A DNA stretch of 64,000 bases. Origin: Candidatus Woesearchaeota archaeon (GTDB lineage Archaea; Nanobdellota; Nanobdellia; Woesearchaeales; JAFGUC01). The notes under the pieces are model-generated. The model searched no databases and was not told where the DNA came from. It worked only from the letters and a program-made list of their open reading frames with translations. Both the position numbers and the translations under genes were made by a program. Positions 14,859 through 51,179 of the stretch are shown here, in pieces (positions within the stretch are counted from its first letter, which is position 1; each line of letters starts with the position of its first letter). The DNA is taken from positions 325,633 through 389,632 of the forward strand of contig JAFGUC010000006.1 in the NCBI GenBank assembly GCA_016938695.1. Reading direction: 5' to 3'.

Positions 14859-14883
14859 TTTGGTCTTTTTTAGAAAATAAAGG

Positions 14884-14998
14884 GCGGACAGCTTTCCGTG
14901 GTTCCCGCACACGAGTGCAGTACAACACGAAACGTAGACTTGCTTAACTTCTGTGTTCGGAAAGGGAACAGGTGTTACCAAGCCGCTTTGGCCGTCCT
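14884..14998 (-). rRNA. rrf: 5S ribosomal RNA
   Basis: The minus strand carries the hallmark loop TTTCCGAACACAGAAGTTAA followed by GC, the standard 5S motif around loops B and C. The 5' GGACGGC and 3' GCTGTCC segments pair over 7 bases as helix I. Length is about 115 nucleotides; the ends are estimated to within a few bases. No 16S, 23S or tRNA gene is seen within at least 14 kb on one side and 49 kb on the other, so the gene is unlinked from any rRNA operon within the window. Confidence 0.93.
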
Positions 14999-15020
14999 AT
15001 ATGTAATGGTGAAACAGGTC

Positions 15021-30965: not shown

Positions 30966-31015
30966 ACGTTTAAGATTTTAGTAAGGGTATAAAAAGTTTT
31001 TCTTAAATAACATAA

Positions 31016-31056
31016 AATATAAAAACCATCTTCGTTTAATGTTATTAAAAGAGGTG
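31016..31056 (+). promoter_or_regulatory. Promoter and ribosome-binding site of the flavodiiron/oxidoreductase operon
   Basis: A TATA-like ATAAAAACC tract near 31019-31027 is followed, at a spacing that would place initiation around 31043-31048, by a strong ribosome-binding site GAGGTG at 31051-31056. The codon 7 bases after it in the reading frame of the fusion protein is GTT (31064), not ATG, GTG or TTG. In other genes here GAGGTG sits 6-7 bases before the start, so initiation seems to be directed to this spot. Confidence 0.5.
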
Positions 31057-31057
31057 A

Positions 31058-33988
31058 ATTAAGGTTTCTAGAACTGTCAAGATTAATGACTCTGTATTTG
31101 GTGTTGGTGTAGTTGATTTAGTTAAAAAGAACTTTGATGAGTTGATGCCTTTACCTGATGGTACTAGTTATAATTCTTATTTAATTAAGGGATCTGAAAA
31201 AACAATCTTGATTGACACTTGTGAATTTGATTTTAAGGAAGAGTTGCTGGATAATATAAAATCTCTTGGTGTTGATAAAATTGATTACGTTATTTCAAAC
31301 CATGCTGAACAAGATCATAGTGGCTCTTTAAATTTTATTTTGGGAAATTTTCCTAATGCAAAAGTTGTTTGTAATGAAAAGGCAAAAAAAGTTTTACAGA
31401 ATGAATTTGAATTTAGTGATGATGTTTTTCTGATAATCTCAGATGGTGAAACTTTAAGTCTTGGTGATAAAACTTTAGAATTTATTTTTGCGGAGTGGGT
31501 TCATTGGCCTGAGACAATGTTTACTTATTTACGTGAAGACAAGATTTTATTTCCTTGCGATTTTTTTGGTGCTCATTTAGCAAATAATGATTTTGTGACA
31601 GGTTTTGATGAAATATCTCATCCTGCAAAAAGATATTATGCTGAAATAATGATGCCTTTTTCATCATTTGTGAAAAAGCATTTACTTAAGCTTGAGAATT
31701 ATTCTATTAATGTAATCGCACCAAGTCATGGACCAATATATTCTGAACCAGAAATGATTATTAATTTGTATAAGGAATGGACATCTGAAAAATATTCTAA
31801 TGTTGTTGTCATGCCGTACATTACTATGCATGGTGATGTTCCTAAGATGATTTCTTATTTAGCAGAAAAATTAAAGAGTAAAGATTTTGATGTCAAATTG
31901 TATGATTTGTCTGATTCTGATGTTGGTGACATTGCAATGAATTTAATTAATTCATACGCATTAGTATGTGGTTCTCCGTCGTACTTGGGTGGAATGCATC
32001 CTAAACTTGCATCATTATTGTATTTAATTAAAGGATTTAAACCTACTTTTAAGTATACTGCTTTGATTAATTCTTTTTATTGGGGGAGTGGAATTGTTGA
32101 AGAATTTAAAACTGCAACTGCAGGATTAAATGCGAAATATATTGATTCTGTATTGATTCAAGGTAAACTTAATGATGATGGAAAAAAATTATTAGATGTT
32201 CTTGCTGAAAAATTAATGGATGAGGAAAAAATGGATACTGTAAATGTTTCAAATTTTGTGGATTATAAAAATAATATTCAAAAGAAATTAGAACTTAAAG
32301 ATGATGTATCAATTGTTCTTTGTGGTGAAGCAGGACAAGGAATTCAAACAATCCAACAGATGCTTACTCACTTACTTAGGTTAGATGGTTATAATGTTTT
32401 TACAACAAAAGAATATATGTCTAGAGTCCGGGGAGGATCTAACTCTACTGAGATTCGTGTTACAAGTAAGAAAAGTCGCGGATTTGTGAATAAGATTGAT
32501 ATTTTAATTCCCTTAGATGAAAAGGCTGTTGAACATTTGCAATCGCGAATATCTGAAGACACAATTATAATTGGCAACAGGGATATTGTTCCTGAAAAAT
32601 ATTCTTTAATTGACATTCCTTTTGTAAAAATTGCAACTCAAATTGGAAACAAGATTTATGCTAATACGATTTCTGTTGCAACTATTCTATCATTATTTAA
32701 TGTAAGTTCTGTTAATCTTGAGAATTATTTGAGAACTAGATTTGATAAAAAAGGCGAAGATGTCATTAATAATAATTTACTTGCCGCTAAAAAAGGATTT
32801 GAATTAGGTAAAAAAATAATCTTGGATGGAATTAGTATTAATGTTGCTAAATCAGATGATTCTAGAAATGATATTTTTTTATGTGGAACTGATGCTGTTG
32901 GTTTAGGAGCAATTGCTGGAGGCTGTAATTTTGTTTCAAGTTATCCTATGTCTCCGTCGACAGGAGTTCTTGTTTTTTTATCTGGTCAATCTAATGATTT
33001 TAAGATAAATGTTGAACAAGCTGAAGATGAGATTTGTGCAGTTAACATGGGTCTTGGTGCATCGTACTCGGGTGCAAGATCTTTAGTTACAACTTCAGGT
33101 GGTGGATTTGCGTTAATGGGTGAAGGAGTAAGTTTATCTGGCATGATAGAAACACCAATTGTATTTCACATTGCTCAACGACCAGGTCCTGCAACTGGTT
33201 TACCAACTAGAACTGGTCAAGAAGACCTGAATTTGGTTTTGTATGCGGGTCACGGTGAATTTCCTAGAATGATTTTTGCACCAGGAACATTGGATGATGG
33301 ATATTTTTTGACGGCGCATGCATTTAATATGGCTGATAAATATCAAATTCCTGCATTTGTTTTAACAGACGAATACTATGTAGATACATATTACAATTGT
33401 GAAAAATTTGATGTAAATAAAATTAAAGCTCAAAAGAATATTGTTGAAACTGATGTGGACTATAAACGTTATTCATATTCTGAAACTGGAATAAGTCCTC
33501 GTGGTGTTCCTGGTAACGGAACAGGTCTAGTTTGTGCTGATAGTGATGAACACGATGAAACTGGACACGTTACTGAAGATTCTAATGTAAGAATAAAGAT
33601 GCAACAAAAACGTCTCAAGAAAGGAGATGTCATGATGCAAGATGTATTGCTACCAAAAATTGTGGGAAATAATGATGATTATGATGTTGCAATTATCTCT
33701 TGGGGTTCAACATTTGAAACAGTAAAAGAGGCTGTTGAGAAAATAAATGAAGAAGGTAAACAAGTTTGTTTATTTCATTTTGTTCAGTTATATCCTTTGT
33801 ATTCGAAGATTAATGATATATTTGAAAAAGCTACTAAAACAATTATTATTGAAGGAAATTCGACATCACAATTTTCACGTTTGATAAGACAAGAAACTGG
33901 TTTTTTGATTCCTGAAAAAATATTGAAGTATGATGGATTTCAGTTTACTGTTGAAGAAGTATATTCTGAAATTTTAAAGAGGATCTAA
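31058..33988 (+). CDS. Flavodiiron protein fused to 2-oxoacid oxidoreductase gamma and alpha domains
   Basis: About 976 residues, four domains. (1) Metallo-beta-lactamase diiron domain with all ligands: [10 protein letters not shown] (H, E, D, H), then EWVHWPE, FPCDFFG, IAPSHGP, as in FprA/ROO, which reduces O2 to water or NO to N2O. (2) Flavodoxin-like domain, [12 protein letters not shown] and [11 protein letters not shown], with the FMN-phosphate loop altered. (3) Gamma domain of a 2-oxoacid:acceptor oxidoreductase, [11 protein letters not shown]. (4) Alpha domain, [12 protein letters not shown] and [17 protein letters not shown]. The first ~28 residues ([12 protein letters not shown]) match FDP N-termini but precede every canonical start; the first is TTG 31142. 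31058 is simply the first open codon. The beta gene follows by one base. Confidence 0.85.
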
Positions 33989-33989
33989 A

Positions 33990-35885
33990 ATGACTAATAA
34001 ATTTGATATGGGAAATATTGATATTGCTTGGTGTCCTGGTTGTGGTGATTTTGGAATATTGGCAACATTAAAGGAAGTTTTTTCAGAGTTAAATTATGAT
34101 CCTAAAGATGTTGTTCTAGTTTCAGGTATTGGTCAAGCTGCAAAAACTCCACAATATGTCAAATCAAATTTTTTTAATGGTTTACATGGTAGAGCTTTAC
34201 CTCCTGCAACAGGAATATCTTTATCGAATCCTAATTTGAAAGTAATTGTTACAAGTGGTGACGGTGATATGTATGGAGAAGGGGGAAATCATTTCATTCA
34301 CGCAATCCGACGTAATCCAAATATTACAGTCTTTGTCTATAATAATATGATTTATGGATTGACAAAAGGTCAAGCATCACCAACAAGTCTTGTTGGAATG
34401 AAAACACCTGTACAAGTTAATGGTGTCTTTTTAGAACCATTTAATCCGTTGGCAGTTGCAATCAGTTTAGATGCTTCTTTTGTCGCTCGAACATCTATAA
34501 CTGACATTGAACACAGCAAAGAAATTTTCAAGAAGGCATTGGAGCACAAGGGATTTTCATTGGTTGACATTTTTCAGCCATGTGTTAGTTTTAATAAATT
34601 AAATACATATGAATGGTTTAGAGATAACACTTATTATCTTAATTCAAATCACGACGTGCATGATAGAAATTTAGCTTTTTCTAAAGCTACAGAAACAATT
34701 GAGCATGGTAAATTGCCTTTAGGGATTTTTTATATTTCAAAAGAAAAGAAAACAATTAATGAATTTGTAATTGGCAATACTAAGGATTCTACTCCATTGT
34801 ATAATCATGAAGTTGATTATGATAAACTTGATAAGTTACTTGATAGTAAAATTGAACGTGAGATTATTACAAATTCTGTTGTTGATGATAATGAATTTGT
34901 TGCGAAAATTGTTGAACAATGGAATGAAACTCATAATGTCAAATCTTTTGTTTTGGCTGTAAGTAATTTTTCTTTTAAATCTGGTCAACATATTAGTGTT
35001 GGTTTTAAAGATGGAAGAAAAATAAATGGAAAAGACAAAATTCCTTTGAGTATTTCTAATCCACCAACTGATAAAGATAAAATAATTATTACATTTAAAG
35101 AGGTTGGCTTGTTTACAAGTGAATTGGCTAAATGTAAAATTGGTGATGAATTAATTATTAGTAAACCGTTTGGAAATACTTTTATTGTCGATGATAAAAC
35201 TGCAGATGACTTCATAATATTGTCTGGCGGAACTGGTATTACTCCTTTTATGAGTGGTATTAGATTTTTGCTAGCTAAAAACATGAAAAATAATGTAATT
35301 TTGTTTGATGGTAATTTGACAGAGAATGATATTATTTTTAGAGATGAATTAGGCAGAATAAATAATGAACGTGACAATGTTAAAATTGTGCACGTTTTAT
35401 CAAATGCAACATCTGAATGTGGTATTGGTGAAAAAGGTTTTATCACTAAGGATTTAATATTAAAATATGCTAATGATTTATCAAAATACAAATGGATGAT
35501 TTGTGGTCCGCCTGTTATGATTAAAGCAATGCAATCTGTTCTTATTGAATTAAATATTCCTAAAGAAAAGATTCTTGTCGAGGAATGGAATCAAACTTGT
35601 GAACCCGCAAAAAAATTAGGTGATAATATGGAGAATGCAATTTTATCAAATGGTACTAAAGAAGTTGAATTAAGTCCTGGTCCAATAATTAAAGCTGCTG
35701 AAGAATTAGGAGTTCCTTTTTTATGCAGACAAGGTGTTTGTGGAACTTGTAAGATAACTATTGAAGAAGGAATGGAAAACTTAGAAGAGTTAACAGAAAA
35801 AGAAAAAGCAATGAACCTTGCTCCTAATCAAAGACTTAGTTGTCAAGCAAAAATCAAAGGTGGAAAGGTTAGGATTAGTTTTTAG
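33990..35885 (+). CDS. 2-oxoacid oxidoreductase beta fused to FNR-like reductase and 2Fe-2S ferredoxin
   Basis: 631 residues. Residues 1-285: thiamine-diphosphate beta subunit with WCPGCGDFG, the TPP motif [12 protein letters not shown] and [12 protein letters not shown]. Residues ~300-530: ferredoxin-NAD(P) reductase-like module with [12 protein letters not shown] and [13 protein letters not shown]. Residues ~545-631: plant-type ferredoxin, [13 protein letters not shown] plus Cys618. The third cysteine for the 4Fe-4S cluster, normally GIGCS, is glutamine 49 (GIGQAAKTP); Cys15, Cys18 and Cys198 remain. Paired with the preceding fusion it should complete an alpha/beta/gamma oxidoreductase with its own electron-transfer chain. 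Overlaps radC by 4 bases. Confidence 0.88.
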
Positions 35886-45017: not shown

Positions 45018-46553
45018 TTATTTCTTTTGGTTTGGCAATGTGAAAATAAGACTTGTTCCTTTATTAGCACCTTTACTTTCTGCCCAAATCTTACCACCAT
45101 GTGCTTTAATTATTTTGTTACAAATTGCAAGACCTAGACCTGATGATGCTGCAGCGTCGTGCCTTGAATCATCGATTTTAAAGAATTCTTCAAATATTTT
45201 ACTTATGTATTTCTTATCAATACCAATACCAGAATCTTTTATTGTTATTTGAGTGAACTTACCTTTCTTTTTTGCGCTGATTTCGACTTCTTTTTTCTTA
45301 GGCATATATTTAACAGAGTTACCAATTATATTTGCAATGACTTCTGTTATCCTGAATTTATCAGCATATACTATTAGTGAATCTGTTTTTATTGTGTTTT
45401 TTATTTTAACTTTATTTTGTTTGGTAATTACTTCAATTGCTTTTAATGAATCATCTAGTATTTTTTTCATAGAAATATTTTCAAAATGAAATTCGGATTT
45501 TCCTGTATCAAGTCTTGATAGATTTAATGTATCTGAAACTAGAGTTGATAAGTATTCAACATTATTATCAATTATTCTTAATTTGTCTTTTAGTTTTCCA
45601 CATCGTGCATCATTTGTTATTATTGGCAATAATGCTTTTATTGGTGTTAAGGGTGTTCTTAAATCATGTGCTACTTGATTGATAAACTGGGTTTTTAGAT
45701 TTAGTAAATTTAGTATTTTTTTATTTGCATTTTCTAAATCTTTTGTTCTTAATTTTACTTTCTTTTCTAGATTTTTATTTAAGTATTCTATTTCACTAAT
45801 CTTTTCTTTTAATGCCATTACCATTTGATCTAATGATTCTGCTAGAATACCAATTTCATCATTTCTGTTTTTTATGGATGGATTAATATGTTCGTATTTT
45901 CCGTCAGAAATTCTTTTTGAAGCTTCTGAAAGTTCAATTATTGGTTTTGTAAAATTACTTATAACTATAAATGTAGCAATAATTGTCACGATATATGTTA
46001 GTATATTTCTTATATTGCCATAAAATATGGATTCATTTATTTTTTTTTCAGTTTCTGCACTTATTTTATTAAAATAATTTAGTTCACTTAAAATTAATTC
46101 AGCAGTATTGTCTCGAACAAAATCAGCATATTTTAATAATTCCCAATATTTGCTTGATATTCCAAGGATAGAATTACTGTTTAAAGTTTTGTTTGATTCT
46201 AATATTATGTTATTAATTGAATTTCTTATTCCTCTAAACTTTATATAACTATTTGGATCTTTTATTCCTGCTTCAATATTATCTAAAGTATTTATTATTT
46301 TTTCAGATTCTATGTAGAAATCATGGATTAAATTTTTATCTTTTGCTGCAGCATAAAATTTGTTTACTAGGTTATATGCTTCTGTTGTTAATGATTCTTC
46401 AATCATAAGATTATTTAATATTTCTCTTTGCTCATTTTGAAGATTTGTATATGATACAAATCTTGCATGAGTACTTACTATTAAAAGAGTAAAAAAACTA
46501 ACTATAACTAGTAAAATTTTCAGTTTTATTGATTTATTCTTCTTTATAGACAT
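45018..46553 (-). CDS. Sensor histidine kinase (HAMP, HisKA)
   Basis: 511 residues. Two membrane helices (~13-30 and ~186-205) enclose an extracytoplasmic helical domain; then HAMP, a coiled coil and the kinase core: H-box QVAHDLRTPLTPIKALL, N-box VIANIIGNSVKYM, G1 IKDSGIGIDKKYI, G2 GLGLAICNKIIKAHGGKIW. Its start overlaps the end of the XylF-like gene by 20 bases, so the two are translationally coupled. No response regulator is in the window. Confidence 0.9.
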   Translation of the reverse strand: MSIKKNKSIKLKILLVIVSFFTLLIVSTHARFVSYTNLQNEQREILNNLMIEESLTTEAYNLVNKFYAAAKDKNLIHDFYIESEKIINTLDNIEAGIKDPNSYIKFRGIRNSINNIILESNKTLNSNSILGISSKYWELLKYADFVRDNTAELILSELNYFNKISAETEKKINESIFYGNIRNILTYIVTIIATFIVISNFTKPIIELSEASKRISDGKYEHINPSIKNRNDEIGILAESLDQMVMALKEKISEIEYLNKNLEKKVKLRTKDLENANKKILNLLNLKTQFINQVAHDLRTPLTPIKALLPIITNDARCGKLKDKLRIIDNNVEYLSTLVSDTLNLSRLDTGKSEFHFENISMKKILDDSLKAIEVITKQNKVKIKNTIKTDSLIVYADKFRITEVIANIIGNSVKYMPKKKEVEISAKKKGKFTQITIKDSGIGIDKKYISKIFEEFFKIDDSRHDAAASSGLGLAICNKIIKAHGGKIWAESKGANKGTSLIFTLPNQKK

Positions 46554-47562
46554 CTTCTCTACTATGAAATCCGTCAGCTATAATTGTCTTATCAATATTC
46601 TCTTTTGTAACAAGTGTTGGTTTTAACAATCTTGATGGTACTTGCATTAGTTTATTATCCAAATATGTATCAATTTGGTAATACTCATCTTTTGCCATTT
46701 GAATTGCTATTTTAATTGTTTCTCTTGCTAATTCTTTTATTGGTTTATACACTGTTCCTGTTTGTGTTCCTTGTATTATTCTTTGACATGCTGTAAGGTC
46801 TGCATCTTGGCCTGATACAGGAATTTTTCCATTTAAACCAAATTTTTCTAAAGCTTGAATTGAACCAAAAGCAGTTCCATCATTTGCAGCAATAACTCCA
46901 ACAATATCTGTTCCGTTTTCAGTAAGGTAGTTGAATAGATGTTCATATGCTGATTCTGGTTTCCATTGGTCTGAGAATTGATCTACAACGATTTCATATG
47001 TTCCGTTTTGGATGTATGGTTCTAAAACTTCTAATGAGCCTTTTCTTAGAAGTAATGCGTTGTTATCAGTTATTGAACCACCAATATATGCAACTTTTCC
47101 TGGTTTTGCGTTGTTTAAAACTACTTGTGCTTCTAGTCTTCCTACTTCTTCATTATCAAAAGAAATGTACAAATCTACGTAAGTGTCAGTCATTAATCTA
47201 TCGTAACTAATAACCATTATTCCTTTTTCACTTGCTAATTTTGTTAAATTTGCTAATGAATCTGCAACTTGAGGAACTATTATCAATACATCAACGCCTT
47301 GTAATATTAAATTTTCAATTTCATTTTTTTGAATTTGTACATCATTGTTTGATGACTTTAATATCACGTCAGCACCTAATTCACTTGCATATTCTTCTAA
47401 ATATGCTTTATCTTTTAGCCAACGTTCCTCTTGGTATCCGCTCATTGAAATTCCTATAAGAGGTTTATTTTCTACTATTTGATTTGTTACTTGTGTGTTT
47501 TGAGTAGTACAACTAGACAAAGACAGCAATAGAATTGTTAAAATAATTAGTAAATGTCGCAT
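46534..47562 (-). CDS. XylF-like sugar-binding lipoprotein, sensor partner
   Basis: 342 residues. Signal peptide with lipobox LSLSSCTTQ, then a periplasmic-binding-protein fold of the type I sugar class: GISMSGYQEERWLKDKA, ILQGVDVLIIVPQV, YISFDNEEVGRLEAQ, VIAANDGTAFGSIQAL, VSGQDADLTACQ and GTQTGTVYKP, all matching D-xylose/ChvE-type proteins. There are no ABC permease or ATPase genes around; instead a histidine kinase overlaps it. This resembles sugar-sensing pairs such as XylFII-LytS, so a signal role is more likely than import (inference). Confidence 0.85.
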   Translation of the reverse strand: MRHLLIILTILLLSLSSCTTQNTQVTNQIVENKPLIGISMSGYQEERWLKDKAYLEEYASELGADVILKSSNNDVQIQKNEIENLILQGVDVLIIVPQVADSLANLTKLASEKGIMVISYDRLMTDTYVDLYISFDNEEVGRLEAQVVLNNAKPGKVAYIGGSITDNNALLLRKGSLEVLEPYIQNGTYEIVVDQFSDQWKPESAYEHLFNYLTENGTDIVGVIAANDGTAFGSIQALEKFGLNGKIPVSGQDADLTACQRIIQGTQTGTVYKPIKELARETIKIAIQMAKDEYYQIDTYLDNKLMQVPSRLLKPTLVTKENIDKTIIADGFHSREDVYKEE

Positions 47563-48717: not shown

Positions 48718-50629
48718 TTAAATTATTTATTTCTTCTTTTAATGAAATCATCTTAAGTTCTCTGTTGACTGTTATATCCTGAAATTTTTGTAACTCTTCA
48801 ACTTTTTGCTTTAGTTCTTCTTCTATCCTAAACCTTAACAAACCTGCTGAAATTATCTCGCCTATTGATTTAATTAATGAAATTTTTTCTTTTGACCATC
48901 CAATTATTCTATTATGGCATGTTAAAGTGAAATATCCATTGAATTTTTCATGAATTGTCAGAGGAATTATGAGCATTGACTTTACTTTTTGATGTGATAT
49001 AAATTCTCGCATTTGCTTGTTCTTGATATCTGATATTTCTTTATACATAAAAAGTCCATTTGAACTTAATTTTGTAAAAATATTAATGCCTGTTTTTGCT
49101 GGAAGACTATTGATAAATTCTTTTTGAGAAGGAACGTTTTTTGCTTTCCATTCATATATTTCAGCTATTTTTTCGTTATTTATCTCAAATATACATGTTT
49201 GAGTCAAGTTGAACATGTCATTAATTACTTCTAGAGAATTTTCCATCGTTTCTTTTTTGTTTTGACTTTTGACAAAAAAAGACGTAATGATGCTTAGTAA
49301 TGTTTCGGATCTTAAATGTTTTCTTAGTGACTCTTTTGTTTCTATTTCTTTTGTTTGATCAGTGAACATAACTAAGAATGCAGGTTTTCTTTGAAATAAT
49401 ATCTTACTTGTCGATACTGTTAAAAATATTTTTTTTCCATTGCTATCAAAGAATTCCTCGGTAATTATTGGTAATGGACCAAAATCACTATGTTTCCATC
49501 TATCGATAATAATACTTTTAGTCTCTGGAGGAATGTTTTTAAATATATCGTATCCTTGATATTTTGTTGATTTGTTAACATTAAACAGTTTGTAAACACC
49601 TTCGTTTGCAAGTATTACTTTTTGTCCGTCATGTACTAGAATTGGAACAGGAGCATTTTTTACAATTAGCTCGTAATTTTGTTTTTCCTCTAGAAGAACT
49701 TGTTGAGCTCTTAGCAATTCTGTTTGATCTTCAAAAGTTGTTATAATTTCATTTTGTACTATGATGTGTGATATCTTTACAGTCTTGATTTCAGAATTTT
49801 TGCATTTTATGCTTACTGTTCGTGAAAGTTTATTGATTGCTTTTTTGTTTGAAAGTTTTTTTTCGTAATCTAATATTTTTTGGTTTGTACTTATTAGTTT
49901 TGATTGCCAATTTTTTCCTTTTATATCATCTAAAGTATATCCTAGTAATTTAGTAAACTCAGAGTTACAATATTTTGATTCAAGATTAGATGTTACAACA
50001 AGAATTGGAATTCTCAAATTATCAATTATATCTTTATATCTTTTCTCGTGTGCTTCTAGTTCCTCTTTTGCTTTTTTTAGGTCTAAAATTGTATTTTTAC
50101 TTTCAGTTATATCTTCGAATATAGTAATAAATTCTAATTTTTTTGGTGAGAAAGCAGTTATCTTAAACCATTTTTCATTTATTTTAGAATATGTCTCAAA
50201 TGATATGCTTTTTTGTGTTAAGGCAACTTTTCCGTATATTGATATCCAATTAACATTGTCTTTTTTTATGCCTTTAAAAATTTGAGTTACTCTTTTTCCA
50301 ATAATATCTTCTCTTTTTAGATTTAATATTTTTAGAAAAACATCATTTACATCGATAAATATGTAATCTGTTGGTTTTTTGTTTCTATCTAAAACTATTT
50401 TGTGATGTGCAAAAGCGTTTGTATATGTTTTCAGAAAGGAACCTATGTTGTTTTCTTTGAAAATGACAATTGTTTTTCCATCACAACTTAACGTGGTATA
50501 TTTTGGATCGTCATTAAATGTTTTTGGTAAATTTATTTTTTTTGCAGACTCGTTTTTGTAGATAACCTTATTCTTATCTAACACAACTACTGGTTGGAAT
50601 ATAGAATCAAGTACCTTATTGAAATCCAA
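48704..50629 (-). CDS. PAS/GAF-domain sensor without kinase domain
   Basis: 641 residues. Several PAS-like modules are visible (PVVVLDKNKVIYKNESAKKI; FIDVNDVFLKILNLKREDII; RIPILVVTSNLESKYCNSEF; PVPILVHDGQKVILANEGVY), then a GAF-like domain near 470-590 (CIFEINNEKIAEIYEW, SMLIIPLTIHEKFNGYFTL) and a final coiled coil. No HisKA or HATPase follows, so it would need a partner for output. Start: TTG at 50629, 6 bases after GAGGTG, rather than the ATG 33 bases upstream. Confidence 0.78.
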   Translation of the reverse strand: MDFNKVLDSIFQPVVVLDKNKVIYKNESAKKINLPKTFNDDPKYTTLSCDGKTIVIFKENNIGSFLKTYTNAFAHHKIVLDRNKKPTDYIFIDVNDVFLKILNLKREDIIGKRVTQIFKGIKKDNVNWISIYGKVALTQKSISFETYSKINEKWFKITAFSPKKLEFITIFEDITESKNTILDLKKAKEELEAHEKRYKDIIDNLRIPILVVTSNLESKYCNSEFTKLLGYTLDDIKGKNWQSKLISTNQKILDYEKKLSNKKAINKLSRTVSIKCKNSEIKTVKISHIIVQNEIITTFEDQTELLRAQQVLLEEKQNYELIVKNAPVPILVHDGQKVILANEGVYKLFNVNKSTKYQGYDIFKNIPPETKSIIIDRWKHSDFGPLPIITEEFFDSNGKKIFLTVSTSKILFQRKPAFLVMFTDQTKEIETKESLRKHLRSETLLSIITSFFVKSQNKKETMENSLEVINDMFNLTQTCIFEINNEKIAEIYEWKAKNVPSQKEFINSLPAKTGINIFTKLSSNGLFMYKEISDIKNKQMREFISHQKVKSMLIIPLTIHEKFNGYFTLTCHNRIIGWSKEKISLIKSIGEIISAGLLRFRIEEELKQKVEELQKFQDITVNRELKMISLKEEINNLTKSK

Positions 50630-50723
50630 TAAATTCACCTCTTTTAATATATTAAGTATCATTATTTTAAAAGGTTTTGGTTATAACAAAAATTTTATAA
50701 AAGTTTTAATATTATTAATCTTC

Positions 50724-51179
50724 ATGGATGTATTTAACGATATTTTGGATCGTGCAATAATTCATGAGAATAATTCTTATTTGTATTGTGCGGGGTTTTC
50801 TAAAAAATCGTATGATTCGGATTTACGACAACTATATTTGAAGTTAGCTTTAGAGGAATTAGAACATAAAAGAATCCTAGAAATATTCAAAGAAACTAGA
50901 GATATTGATTATTCTGTTCAAGCAGCAAAACATAGAGGTGCTGTGTTTGAAGATGTTGATCCTAGACCTTCTGATTTTATGAATACTTTAGAGGTCAAAA
51001 CAGGTCTTAAAGAGGCAATAGACAAAGAGAAACTAGCTTATGAGATGTATCTTGATTTTAGAGGTAAAGTGGACGATTTGGTTGGTAAAAAACTTCTTTT
51101 TATGCTCGCTAAAATGGAAGAATACCACATGAAAATGCTTGATAAAGAATATTCTAAAAGATTCTTAATCAATGATTAA
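50724..51179 (+). CDS. Ferritin-like/rubrerythrin-type diiron protein
   Basis: 151 residues, four-helix bundle pattern with two repeated iron motifs: AIIHENNSY with ALEELEHKRILE, and AIDKEKLAY with AKMEEYHMKML (Glu ... ExxH twice). No rubredoxin domain. Such proteins detoxify peroxide or sense iron. The ATG at 50724 has a TTTTATAAA box about 22 bases upstream, so a leaderless transcript; the longer frame upstream is promoter. Fits with an oxygen-defence theme together with the flavodiiron fusion. Confidence 0.8.
   Translation: MDVFNDILDRAIIHENNSYLYCAGFSKKSYDSDLRQLYLKLALEELEHKRILEIFKETRDIDYSVQAAKHRGAVFEDVDPRPSDFMNTLEVKTGLKEAIDKEKLAYEMYLDFRGKVDDLVGKKLLFMLAKMEEYHMKMLDKEYSKRFLIND

What the first reader, a model, noticed from the sequence alone, without database searches (positions are those of the whole stretch)
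31058..35885. Two-gene fusion joining flavodiiron oxygen reductase to a complete 2-oxoacid oxidoreductase with its own reductase and ferredoxin
Seen: one ORF with flavodiiron (diiron ligands all present) plus flavodoxin-like plus OFOR gamma and alpha domains; the next ORF, one base away, with OFOR beta plus FNR-like plus 2Fe-2S ferredoxin. Known: FDP reduces O2 or NO; OFOR oxidises 2-oxoacids and passes electrons to ferredoxin; FNR links NAD(P)H to ferredoxin. Inference: the pair forms one machine that uses a 2-oxoacid (or NAD(P)H) to remove O2 or NO without free carriers, or that senses oxygen. I know of no described enzyme with this layout.
Basis: partly seen in the sequence, partly recalled or inferred. 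Interest (0 to 1): 0.93.

Follow-up and report, generated by a model that had tools for sequence, protein, structure and literature searches.

The report
Oxygen reductase fused to oxoacid oxidoreductase
In a small archaeon, an enzyme that destroys oxygen (or nitric oxide) is built into the same two proteins as an enzyme that burns 2-oxoacids and one that draws on NAD(P)H, so it probably makes its own electrons on the spot; several distant bacteria carry similar parts as neighbouring separate genes in oxygen-defence operons.

Summary
ORF A (976 codons) is a flavodiiron (FDP) core fused to OFOR gamma and alpha; ORF B (631 aa, one base on) is OFOR beta fused to an FNR-like reductase and a 2Fe-2S ferredoxin. 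It is not an assembly chimera: G513, another family of the same order, has the same two fusions (53% and 56% identity) with the ferredoxin as a convergent gene; in G119 the flavodoxin end of an FDP is fused straight to the FNR. In several bacteria similar parts are neighbouring separate genes in oxygen-defence operons (PerR, peroxiredoxin, FDP, superoxide reductase, rubrerythrin, OFOR). The fused OFOR groups with those bacterial OFORs, not with the archaeal phylum's own, and shares their Gln in place of one cluster cysteine. Related archaeal FNR genes often sit beside superoxide reductase, rubrerythrin or FDP. Best reading: a dual-fuel (2-oxoacid or NAD(P)H) O2 or NO reductase. Activity, substrate, geometry and cluster type are untested; the bacterial OFORs nearest in the tree lack stress neighbours; the window copy has a deviant FMN loop and an unclear start codon. 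I found no described FDP class with these modules in the papers seen.

The parts
31014..31025 (+). AT-rich TATA-like stretch upstream of gene A
   Evidence: sequence; inference only
31051..31057 (+). Shine-Dalgarno-like GAGGTGA; candidate unusual starts ATT 31058 or GTT 31064
   Evidence: sequence; homologue G513 starts with ATG near the equivalent place
31058..33988 (+). gene A: FDP core + OFOR gamma + OFOR alpha, 976 codons open
31079..31753 (+). metallo-beta-lactamase-like diiron domain (residues 8-232), ligands HEDHHDH complete
31793..32242 (+). flavodoxin-like domain (residues 246-395); FMN loop TMHGDV deviates from SMHGST
32225..32296 (+). linker between FDP core and OFOR gamma (residues 390-413), low confidence in the model
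32297..32827 (+). OFOR gamma domain (residues 414-590)
32858..33985 (+). OFOR alpha domain (residues 601-976), YPMSPST and EQAEDE motifs
33990..35885 (+). gene B: OFOR beta + FNR-like + 2Fe-2S ferredoxin, 631 aa
33990..34844 (+). OFOR beta domain (residues 1-285), GDGD...N TPP motif; cluster cysteines C15, C18, C198, with Gln49 in place of the fourth
34884..35609 (+). FNR-like FAD/NAD(P)H reductase domain (residues 299-540), GGTGITPF and CGPP motifs
35625..35882 (+). 2Fe-2S ferredoxin domain (residues 546-631), C579-x4-C584-x2-C587...C618

Best explanation
The pair encodes a two-subunit, dual-fuel oxygen (or NO) reductase. The FDP core is the output: the FMN of one protomer passes electrons to the diiron site of its partner, which reduces O2 to water (or NO to N2O). 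One input is the OFOR module, which oxidises a 2-oxoacid with CoA and sends electrons through TPP and an unusual beta-subunit cluster. The other is the FNR module, which takes electrons from NAD(P)H through FAD. The 2Fe-2S ferredoxin is the likely shuttle from both to the FMN. FDPs and OFORs both work as dimers (OFOR: recalled), so A and B could assemble as a symmetric A2B2 complex. The gene pair looks like an FDP/FNR/ferredoxin oxygen-defence set of this archaeal group with a bacterial-type OFOR gene pair placed exactly between FDP and FNR. Shown: domains, key residues, a second genome, operon contexts, tree position of the OFOR. Inferred: activity, direction of electron flow, substrate, shuttle role, complex, order of evolutionary steps.
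For: Same double fusion in G513, another family. In G119 the flavodoxin end of an FDP is fused to the FNR, with a convergent ferredoxin gene; the OFOR lies exactly at that junction. Diiron ligands complete. OFOR models pass their cut-offs (TIGR03710 612.7 vs 482.75; TIGR02177 358.8 vs 261.9; NF008821 449.9 vs 438). Bacterial operons with PerR, Prx, FDP, SOR, Rbr and OFOR, and with OFOR, a rubredoxin-like ORF and FDP in a row (L242). Among genomes whose OFOR match scores 480 bits or more, an FDP lies on the same contig and strand within 4.5 kb in 16 of 21, 2 of 6 and 1 of 9, read from the tables. A quick OFOR alpha tree puts both fused copies in a 21-row clade with 19 bacterial rows (SH-aLRT 100), apart from the archaeal phylum's OFORs. 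Gln at the fourth ligand in 2 of 2 fused, 33 of 41 bacterial and 0 of 45 own-phylum distinct betas that cover the sites. Stand-alone FNR genes of the same order lie with SOR, Rbr, ferritin or FDP in 8 of 15 loci read. A whole-genome search found no other FDP in G000, only one weak MBL match; G000 has a separate four-subunit PFOR-like cluster and its own SOR and Rbr. Precedents: rubredoxin as PFOR acceptor (title in the reference list of PMC9364112); ferredoxins co-purifying with OFOR subunits and rubrerythrin-related proteins in Thermococcus (PMC6401487, passages).
Against: No activity, cofactor or complex data exist. The FMN loop of the window copy has T256, D260 and V261 where the 78 relatives have S in 78, S in 76 and T in 72; V occurs in 6 at the last site, D in none at the middle one. 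The start codon of A is not standard. In the FDP tree (13 of 100 inner branches at 95 or more) G513's FDP pairs with G119's (98), not with the window's, and in the OFOR tree the two fused copies pair with support 74 only, so one origin of the fusion is not shown. In two of three bacterial phyla most of these OFORs have no FDP close by, and the bacterial OFORs nearest to the window one by path (L238, L240) show none of the stress genes I labelled. Only 2 fused genomes were found. A 2Fe-2S ferredoxin is not a known partner of an OFOR or an FDP to my knowledge (recalled).
Confidence: 0.58

Rival explanations
1. The OFOR-FNR part is the business end: a 2-oxoacid:NAD(P) oxidoreductase that makes acyl-CoA and NAD(P)H, and the attached FDP is only a local guard that removes O2 before it destroys the OFOR clusters.
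For: OFORs are oxygen sensitive as a class (recalled); beta is fused directly to the FNR in G000 and G513, giving a short path from OFOR to NAD(P); FDPs eliminate oxygen (PMC6033852, passages seen).
Against: G119 has FDP-FNR and the ferredoxin with no OFOR between them, which suggests that the FNR serves the FDP; part of the bacterial homologues lie with SOR, Rbr and Prx; the genome has an ordinary PFOR-like cluster elsewhere.
Confidence: 0.22
2. The window copy is decaying or re-purposed: FMN is no longer bound and the FDP part is a scaffold or O2 sensor.
For: FMN loop changed at positions conserved in relatives; no standard start codon; long end branch (0.92) of the window FDP.
Against: 976 codons stay open with 53% identity to G513 over the whole length; all seven diiron ligands kept; the G513 copy has an intact FMN loop and ATG start.
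Confidence: 0.1
3. An electron-bifurcating or confurcating enzyme that couples NAD(P)H and 2-oxoacid/ferredoxin electrons with O2 or NO as the high-potential acceptor.
For: Two donor modules sit in one complex; the FNR part is distantly related to the small subunit of NfnI (5jca_S, E 2.2e-5).
Against: The family scans of A and B list no large Nfn subunit, Etf or HydABC-type partner (for NCBIfam the best 25 of 41 and 44); O2 reduction is downhill from either donor, so no coupling is needed (reasoning).
Confidence: 0.04
4. Assembly chimera or binning artefact joining bacterial and archaeal genes.
For: OFOR is of bacterial type and the bin has 5.42% contamination; the archaeal rRNA is on another contig (C70).
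Against: G513 repeats both fusions; GC is 0.30-0.34 from 31 to 36 kb against 0.25-0.34 around it; domain junctions are clean and in frame; the contig is 411 kb.
Confidence: 0.02

Closest known systems
Flavodiiron proteins, class A core (Moorella FprA 1ycf, Desulfovibrio ROO 1e5d)
   Same: complete MBL diiron plus flavodoxin core, all seven ligands
   Different: fused at its C-terminus to OFOR gamma-alpha; FMN loop deviates in the window copy
Class F FDPs (Clostridioides CD1623, Trichomonas TvFDPF)
   Same: works-like: self-sufficient FDP with its own electron supply (PMC6033852 and PMC9364112, passages seen)
   Different: class F uses a short rubredoxin plus NROR on one chain; here OFOR, FNR-like and 2Fe-2S modules on two chains
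Two-subunit 2-oxoacid:ferredoxin oxidoreductases (Sulfolobus 5b46/5b48, Magnetococcus 6n2n)
   Same: gamma-alpha fused, separate beta, TPP motifs
   Different: fourth cluster cysteine is Gln; fused to FDP and FNR-Fd
FNR-2Fe-2S reductases (Hcr, PaaE type)
   Same: NAD(P)H/FAD module followed by 2Fe-2S domain; PaaE model matched over 325-631
   Different: below the cut-off of every FNR-type model among the 25 listed of 44; FAD motif IPLSIS rather than RxYS; attached to OFOR beta
Bacterial FDP-OFOR gene neighbourhoods (Goldbacteria L073, Lentisphaerae L074, uncultured L102, Planctomycetota L086)
   Same: same FDP type beside a Gln-type OFOR
   Different: separate genes; no FNR or 2Fe-2S Fd matching gene B in these loci; L086 lies outside the 21-row clade

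Membership tests
Flavodiiron protein | seven diiron ligands H-x-E-x-D-H...H...D...H | tested here: met
   HEDHHDH in the window and 78 of 78 aligned FDP genes, and in G513 and G119
Flavodiiron protein | flavodoxin-like domain with FMN | tested here: inconclusive
   fold predicted and matched to FDP crystals; FMN loop deviates in the window, normal in G513
Flavodiiron protein | O2 or NO reductase activity | not testable with these tools
   none
FDP classes B-H | extra Rd, short Rd, NROR or flavin-reductase modules as named in the published class figure | tested here: not met
   extra modules are OFOR, FNR-like and Fer2; class modules from the figure legend of PMC6033852; the figure itself and the original class paper were not seen
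Two-subunit OFOR | gamma-alpha and beta domains above NCBIfam cut-offs | tested here: met
   TIGR03710 612.7 (cut-off 482.75), TIGR02177 358.8 (261.9), NF008821 449.9 (438)
Two-subunit OFOR | TPP-binding motifs | tested here: met
   YPMSPST, EQAEDE in alpha; GDGDM...NMIYG in beta; motif roles recalled
Two-subunit OFOR | four cysteines for the beta 4Fe-4S cluster | tested here: not met
   C15, C18, Q49, C198; the same in 33 of 41 bacterial betas
Two-subunit OFOR | CoA-dependent oxidation of 2-oxoacids | not testable with these tools
   none
FNR-2Fe-2S reductase | NAD-binding domain and 2Fe-2S cysteines C-x4-C-x2-C...C | tested here: met
   PF00175, PF00111 above cut-off; cysteines
FNR-2Fe-2S reductase | canonical FAD-binding domain and motif RxYS | tested here: inconclusive
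   no Pfam FAD-binding hit; IPLSIS in place of the motif; cytochrome b5 reductase aligns over the region; the motif is recalled

The most novel reading that the evidence does not exclude
A new enzyme type, a water-forming 2-oxoacid (and NAD(P)H):O2/NO oxidoreductase, whose OFOR belongs to a Gln-type family (one cluster cysteine replaced) that powers oxygen and ROS defence in several bacterial phyla, a role I found not described, and that was captured and fused to the FDP in archaea.
Probability: 0.42. Interest if true: 0.87.

Novelty: new variant of a known kind. Interest (0 to 1): 0.73.

Why it matters
PMC9364112 says that characterised class A flavodiiron proteins were studied with artificial partners because their natural electron donors were not identified (passage). 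Here gene fusion and, in part of the bacteria, gene neighbourhood point to 2-oxoacid oxidation as an electron source, which makes that question directly testable. It also suggests that some anaerobes keep a 2-oxoacid oxidoreductase for oxygen defence, separate from the one of central metabolism, with an altered cluster that might tolerate oxygen.

Tried and rejected
Assembly chimera: rejected because G513 repeats both fusions. Other fused copies: among the matches listed, none in a 371-genome phylum sample or a 378-genome class sample apart from G000; only G000 and G513 among 352 genomes of the order (with protein B); none in three bacterial phyla (194, 74 and 45 genomes; only up to 4 candidates a genome were scored). 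Long open frames around OFOR beta in G503, G484, G113 and G505 showed no FNR fusion. The FDP tree did not resolve the origin of the fused FDP. The careful tree did not finish, so the quick tree is reported. The model of A is confident for the FDP core, mixed for alpha (below 50 at 793-839) and poor for gamma, with pTM 0.49; its top Foldseek match, the OFOR 6n2n_A, superposes badly (rmsd 18.2 A). The model of B is too poor to use; no complex could be modelled. The sensor reading was considered and nothing was found for it. Neighbour labels come from local BLAST against proteins of L073, L074, L193, L194 and L197 that I named by reading (recalled), not from Pfam. In one search, betas not covering the scored sites were dropped before the count.
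Full report
WHAT IS THERE. Gene A (window 31058-33988, +) is open for 976 codons and holds, in order, an FDP-type metallo-beta-lactamase domain, a flavodoxin-like domain, an OFOR gamma domain and an OFOR alpha domain. Gene B (33990-35885, +) starts after one spacer base and holds OFOR beta, an FNR-like reductase and a 2Fe-2S ferredoxin. NCBIfam models for OFOR alpha and beta pass their cut-offs, including the equivalog model NF008821 for beta. All seven diiron ligands align with Moorella FprA and are kept in 78 of 78 FDP genes from the 80 fetched loci (the fetching patterns include one of these residues). TPP motifs, NAD-binding motifs and ferredoxin cysteines are present. Pfam gives no flavodoxin and no FAD-binding hit at E 1e-3; those parts are seen through NCBIfam and crystal homologues. 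The AlphaFold model of A, made with 40 rows, is confident for the FDP core (36 of the first 39 ten-residue blocks at 80 or more), low for the linker and gamma and mixed for alpha, pTM 0.49; Foldseek matches the FDP part to FDP crystals (TM-score by target 0.90).

ODDITIES OF THE WINDOW COPY. Gene A has no ATG, GTG or TTG before TTG 31142 (residue 29), although residues 5-28 align with FprA and G513. A Shine-Dalgarno-like GAGGTGA ends at 31057, so the start may be an unusual codon (ATT 31058 or GTT 31064), or there is a sequence error. The FMN loop reads TMHGDV where most relatives read SMHGST: of 78, S is found in 78 at residue 256, S in 76 at 260 and T in 72 at 261. G513 and G119 have the normal loop.

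NOT A CHIMERA. A search of 352 genomes of the order with protein B found G513, in a different family, with a 969-aa FDP-OFOR gamma-alpha gene and a 513-aa OFOR beta-FNR gene (53% and 56% identity). Its 2Fe-2S ferredoxin is a separate, convergent 84-aa gene, 65% identical to the fused one. In G119, of a third family, the flavodoxin end of an FDP is fused directly to the FNR, again with a convergent ferredoxin gene; its diiron domain lies at the end of another contig. Aligning the junctions puts the OFOR exactly between the FDP end and the FNR start. Either an OFOR gene pair was inserted into an FDP-FNR gene, or it was lost from G119; the data do not decide. GC is level across the region. The genome has archaeal SSU and LSU rRNA as best Rfam matches, on another contig.

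WHERE THE OFOR COMES FROM. A genome-contig scan seeded on the FDP part returned 80 loci, 6 of which also hold an OFOR gene pair (L073, L074, L076, L086, L098, L102), all as separate genes; in L098 it is 5 kb away with other genes between, and the OFOR of L076 is of the Cys type. In Goldbacteria (L073) the order is PerR-like, peroxiredoxin, FDP, ferritin-like, superoxide reductase, rubrerythrin, OFOR gamma-alpha, OFOR beta; in Lentisphaerae GWF2_38_69 (L074) ferritin, ferredoxin, Hcp, a small protein, FDP, OFOR gamma-alpha, OFOR beta, rubrerythrin; in L102 OFOR gamma-alpha, OFOR beta, FDP, rubrerythrin (names by reading). Whole-genome searches then gave, among genomes with an OFOR match of 480 bits or more, an FDP on the same contig and strand within 4.5 kb in 16 of 21 (phylum of the Goldbacteria genome, 45 genomes), 2 of 6 (phylum of the Lentisphaerae genome, 194 genomes) and 1 of 9 (phylum of L102's genome, 74 genomes). 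I read these counts from the tables; G827 is counted by its gamma piece because its OFOR is split over two contigs, and one search scored at most 4 candidates a genome. In 8 of the 16 the gap is 1.3-2.7 kb, in the other 8 it is 3.6-4.5 kb. Two further, lower-scoring OFORs lie by an FDP: in L242 the order is OFOR gamma-alpha, OFOR beta, a rubredoxin-like small ORF, FDP, and in L241 OFOR, two further genes, a rubredoxin-like ORF, FDP, rubrerythrin, which read like electron chains. Against this, L192, L195 and L198 and L238, L239, L240, L243 and L245 show no labelled stress gene near the OFOR; L238 and L240 are the bacterial rows nearest to the window OFOR in the tree.

TREE AND CLUSTER LIGAND. 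A quick IQ-TREE of 81 OFOR alpha rows puts both fused copies in a 21-row clade with 19 bacterial rows (SH-aLRT 100), away from the OFORs of the archaeal phylum; the two fused copies pair with support 74 only (the careful tree did not finish). The fourth cysteine of the beta 4Fe-4S cluster (Cys46 in Sulfolobus; alignment, numbering recalled) is Gln in 2 of 2 fused and 33 of 41 bacterial betas, and Cys in 45 of 45 own-phylum betas and 8 of 41 more distant bacterial ones (distinct sequences that cover the sites). The Gln is wider than the 21-row clade: L241 and L242 have it too but fall elsewhere in the tree. A three-cysteine cluster could be 3Fe-4S or have another fourth ligand; this is speculation.

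WHERE THE FNR AND FERREDOXIN COME FROM. I read 15 loci (L248-L262) taken from near the top of the FNR-only matches (G279 and G018 were left out). In 8 of 15 the FNR lies with SOR, Rbr, ferritin, FDP or rubredoxin-like genes (L248, L249, L250, L252, L253, L254, L257, L261; in L261 also a 2Fe-2S ferredoxin, 50% identical); L259 has it beside peroxiredoxin-like genes, and L251, L255, L256, L258, L260 and L262 show no such label. G000 itself has SOR and rubrerythrin, no other FDP found (one weak MBL match only), and a separate four-subunit PFOR-like cluster (weak BLAST and reading).

HOW IT LIKELY WORKS. Electrons from a 2-oxoacid (OFOR) or NAD(P)H (FNR) converge, probably on the 2Fe-2S domain, then on FMN and the diiron site, where O2 or NO is reduced. 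FDPs work as head-to-tail dimers, since FMN and diiron in one chain are about 40 A apart (PMC9364112, passage); OFORs of this type are dimers of heterodimers (recalled), so an A2B2 complex is compatible. PFOR reducing rubredoxin is a published precedent (title in a reference list), and in Thermococcus kodakarensis ferredoxins co-purify with OFOR subunits and with rubrerythrin-related proteins (PMC6401487, passages). Which 2-oxoacid, O2 versus NO, and the direction OFOR to FDP rather than OFOR to NAD(P)+ are not shown.

NOVELTY. [quoted passage not shown] Neither passage names an OFOR, FNR or 2Fe-2S ferredoxin module. The original class paper (Folgosa et al. 2018, recalled) was not read.

Noticed in passing
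window 31051-31142: Gene A lacks a standard start codon; candidates are ATT 31058 or GTT 31064 behind a Shine-Dalgarno-like GAGGTGA.
   Followed up: partly
L264 1-1731 (+): OFOR-beta-like gene in G484 with a long intein-like stretch (by reading) ending in ...HNC just at the cluster cysteine motif.
   Followed up: no
L068 2721-5333 (-): 870-aa protein in the same archaeal order: FDP core, short rubredoxin-like motif and NROR-like end (by reading), resembling class F FDPs.
   Followed up: no
window 14883-14999 (-): Isolated 5S rRNA gene; SSU and LSU are on another contig (C70).
   Followed up: no
window 45018-47562 (-): Histidine kinase beside a periplasmic sugar-binding-like protein (by reading), unusual in a small-genome archaeon.
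   Followed up: no
window 50619-51179 (+): Rubrerythrin/ferritin-like protein (PF02915) about 15 kb from the fusion.
   Followed up: no
L261 4045-6522 (-): 2Fe-2S ferredoxin, two peroxiredoxin-like genes, FNR and superoxide reductase in one cluster of a related archaeon.
   Followed up: partly
L194 7334-10330 (+): Thiol-peroxidase-like gene directly upstream of the Gln-type OFOR pair, suggesting that this OFOR may also feed peroxide reduction.
   Followed up: no
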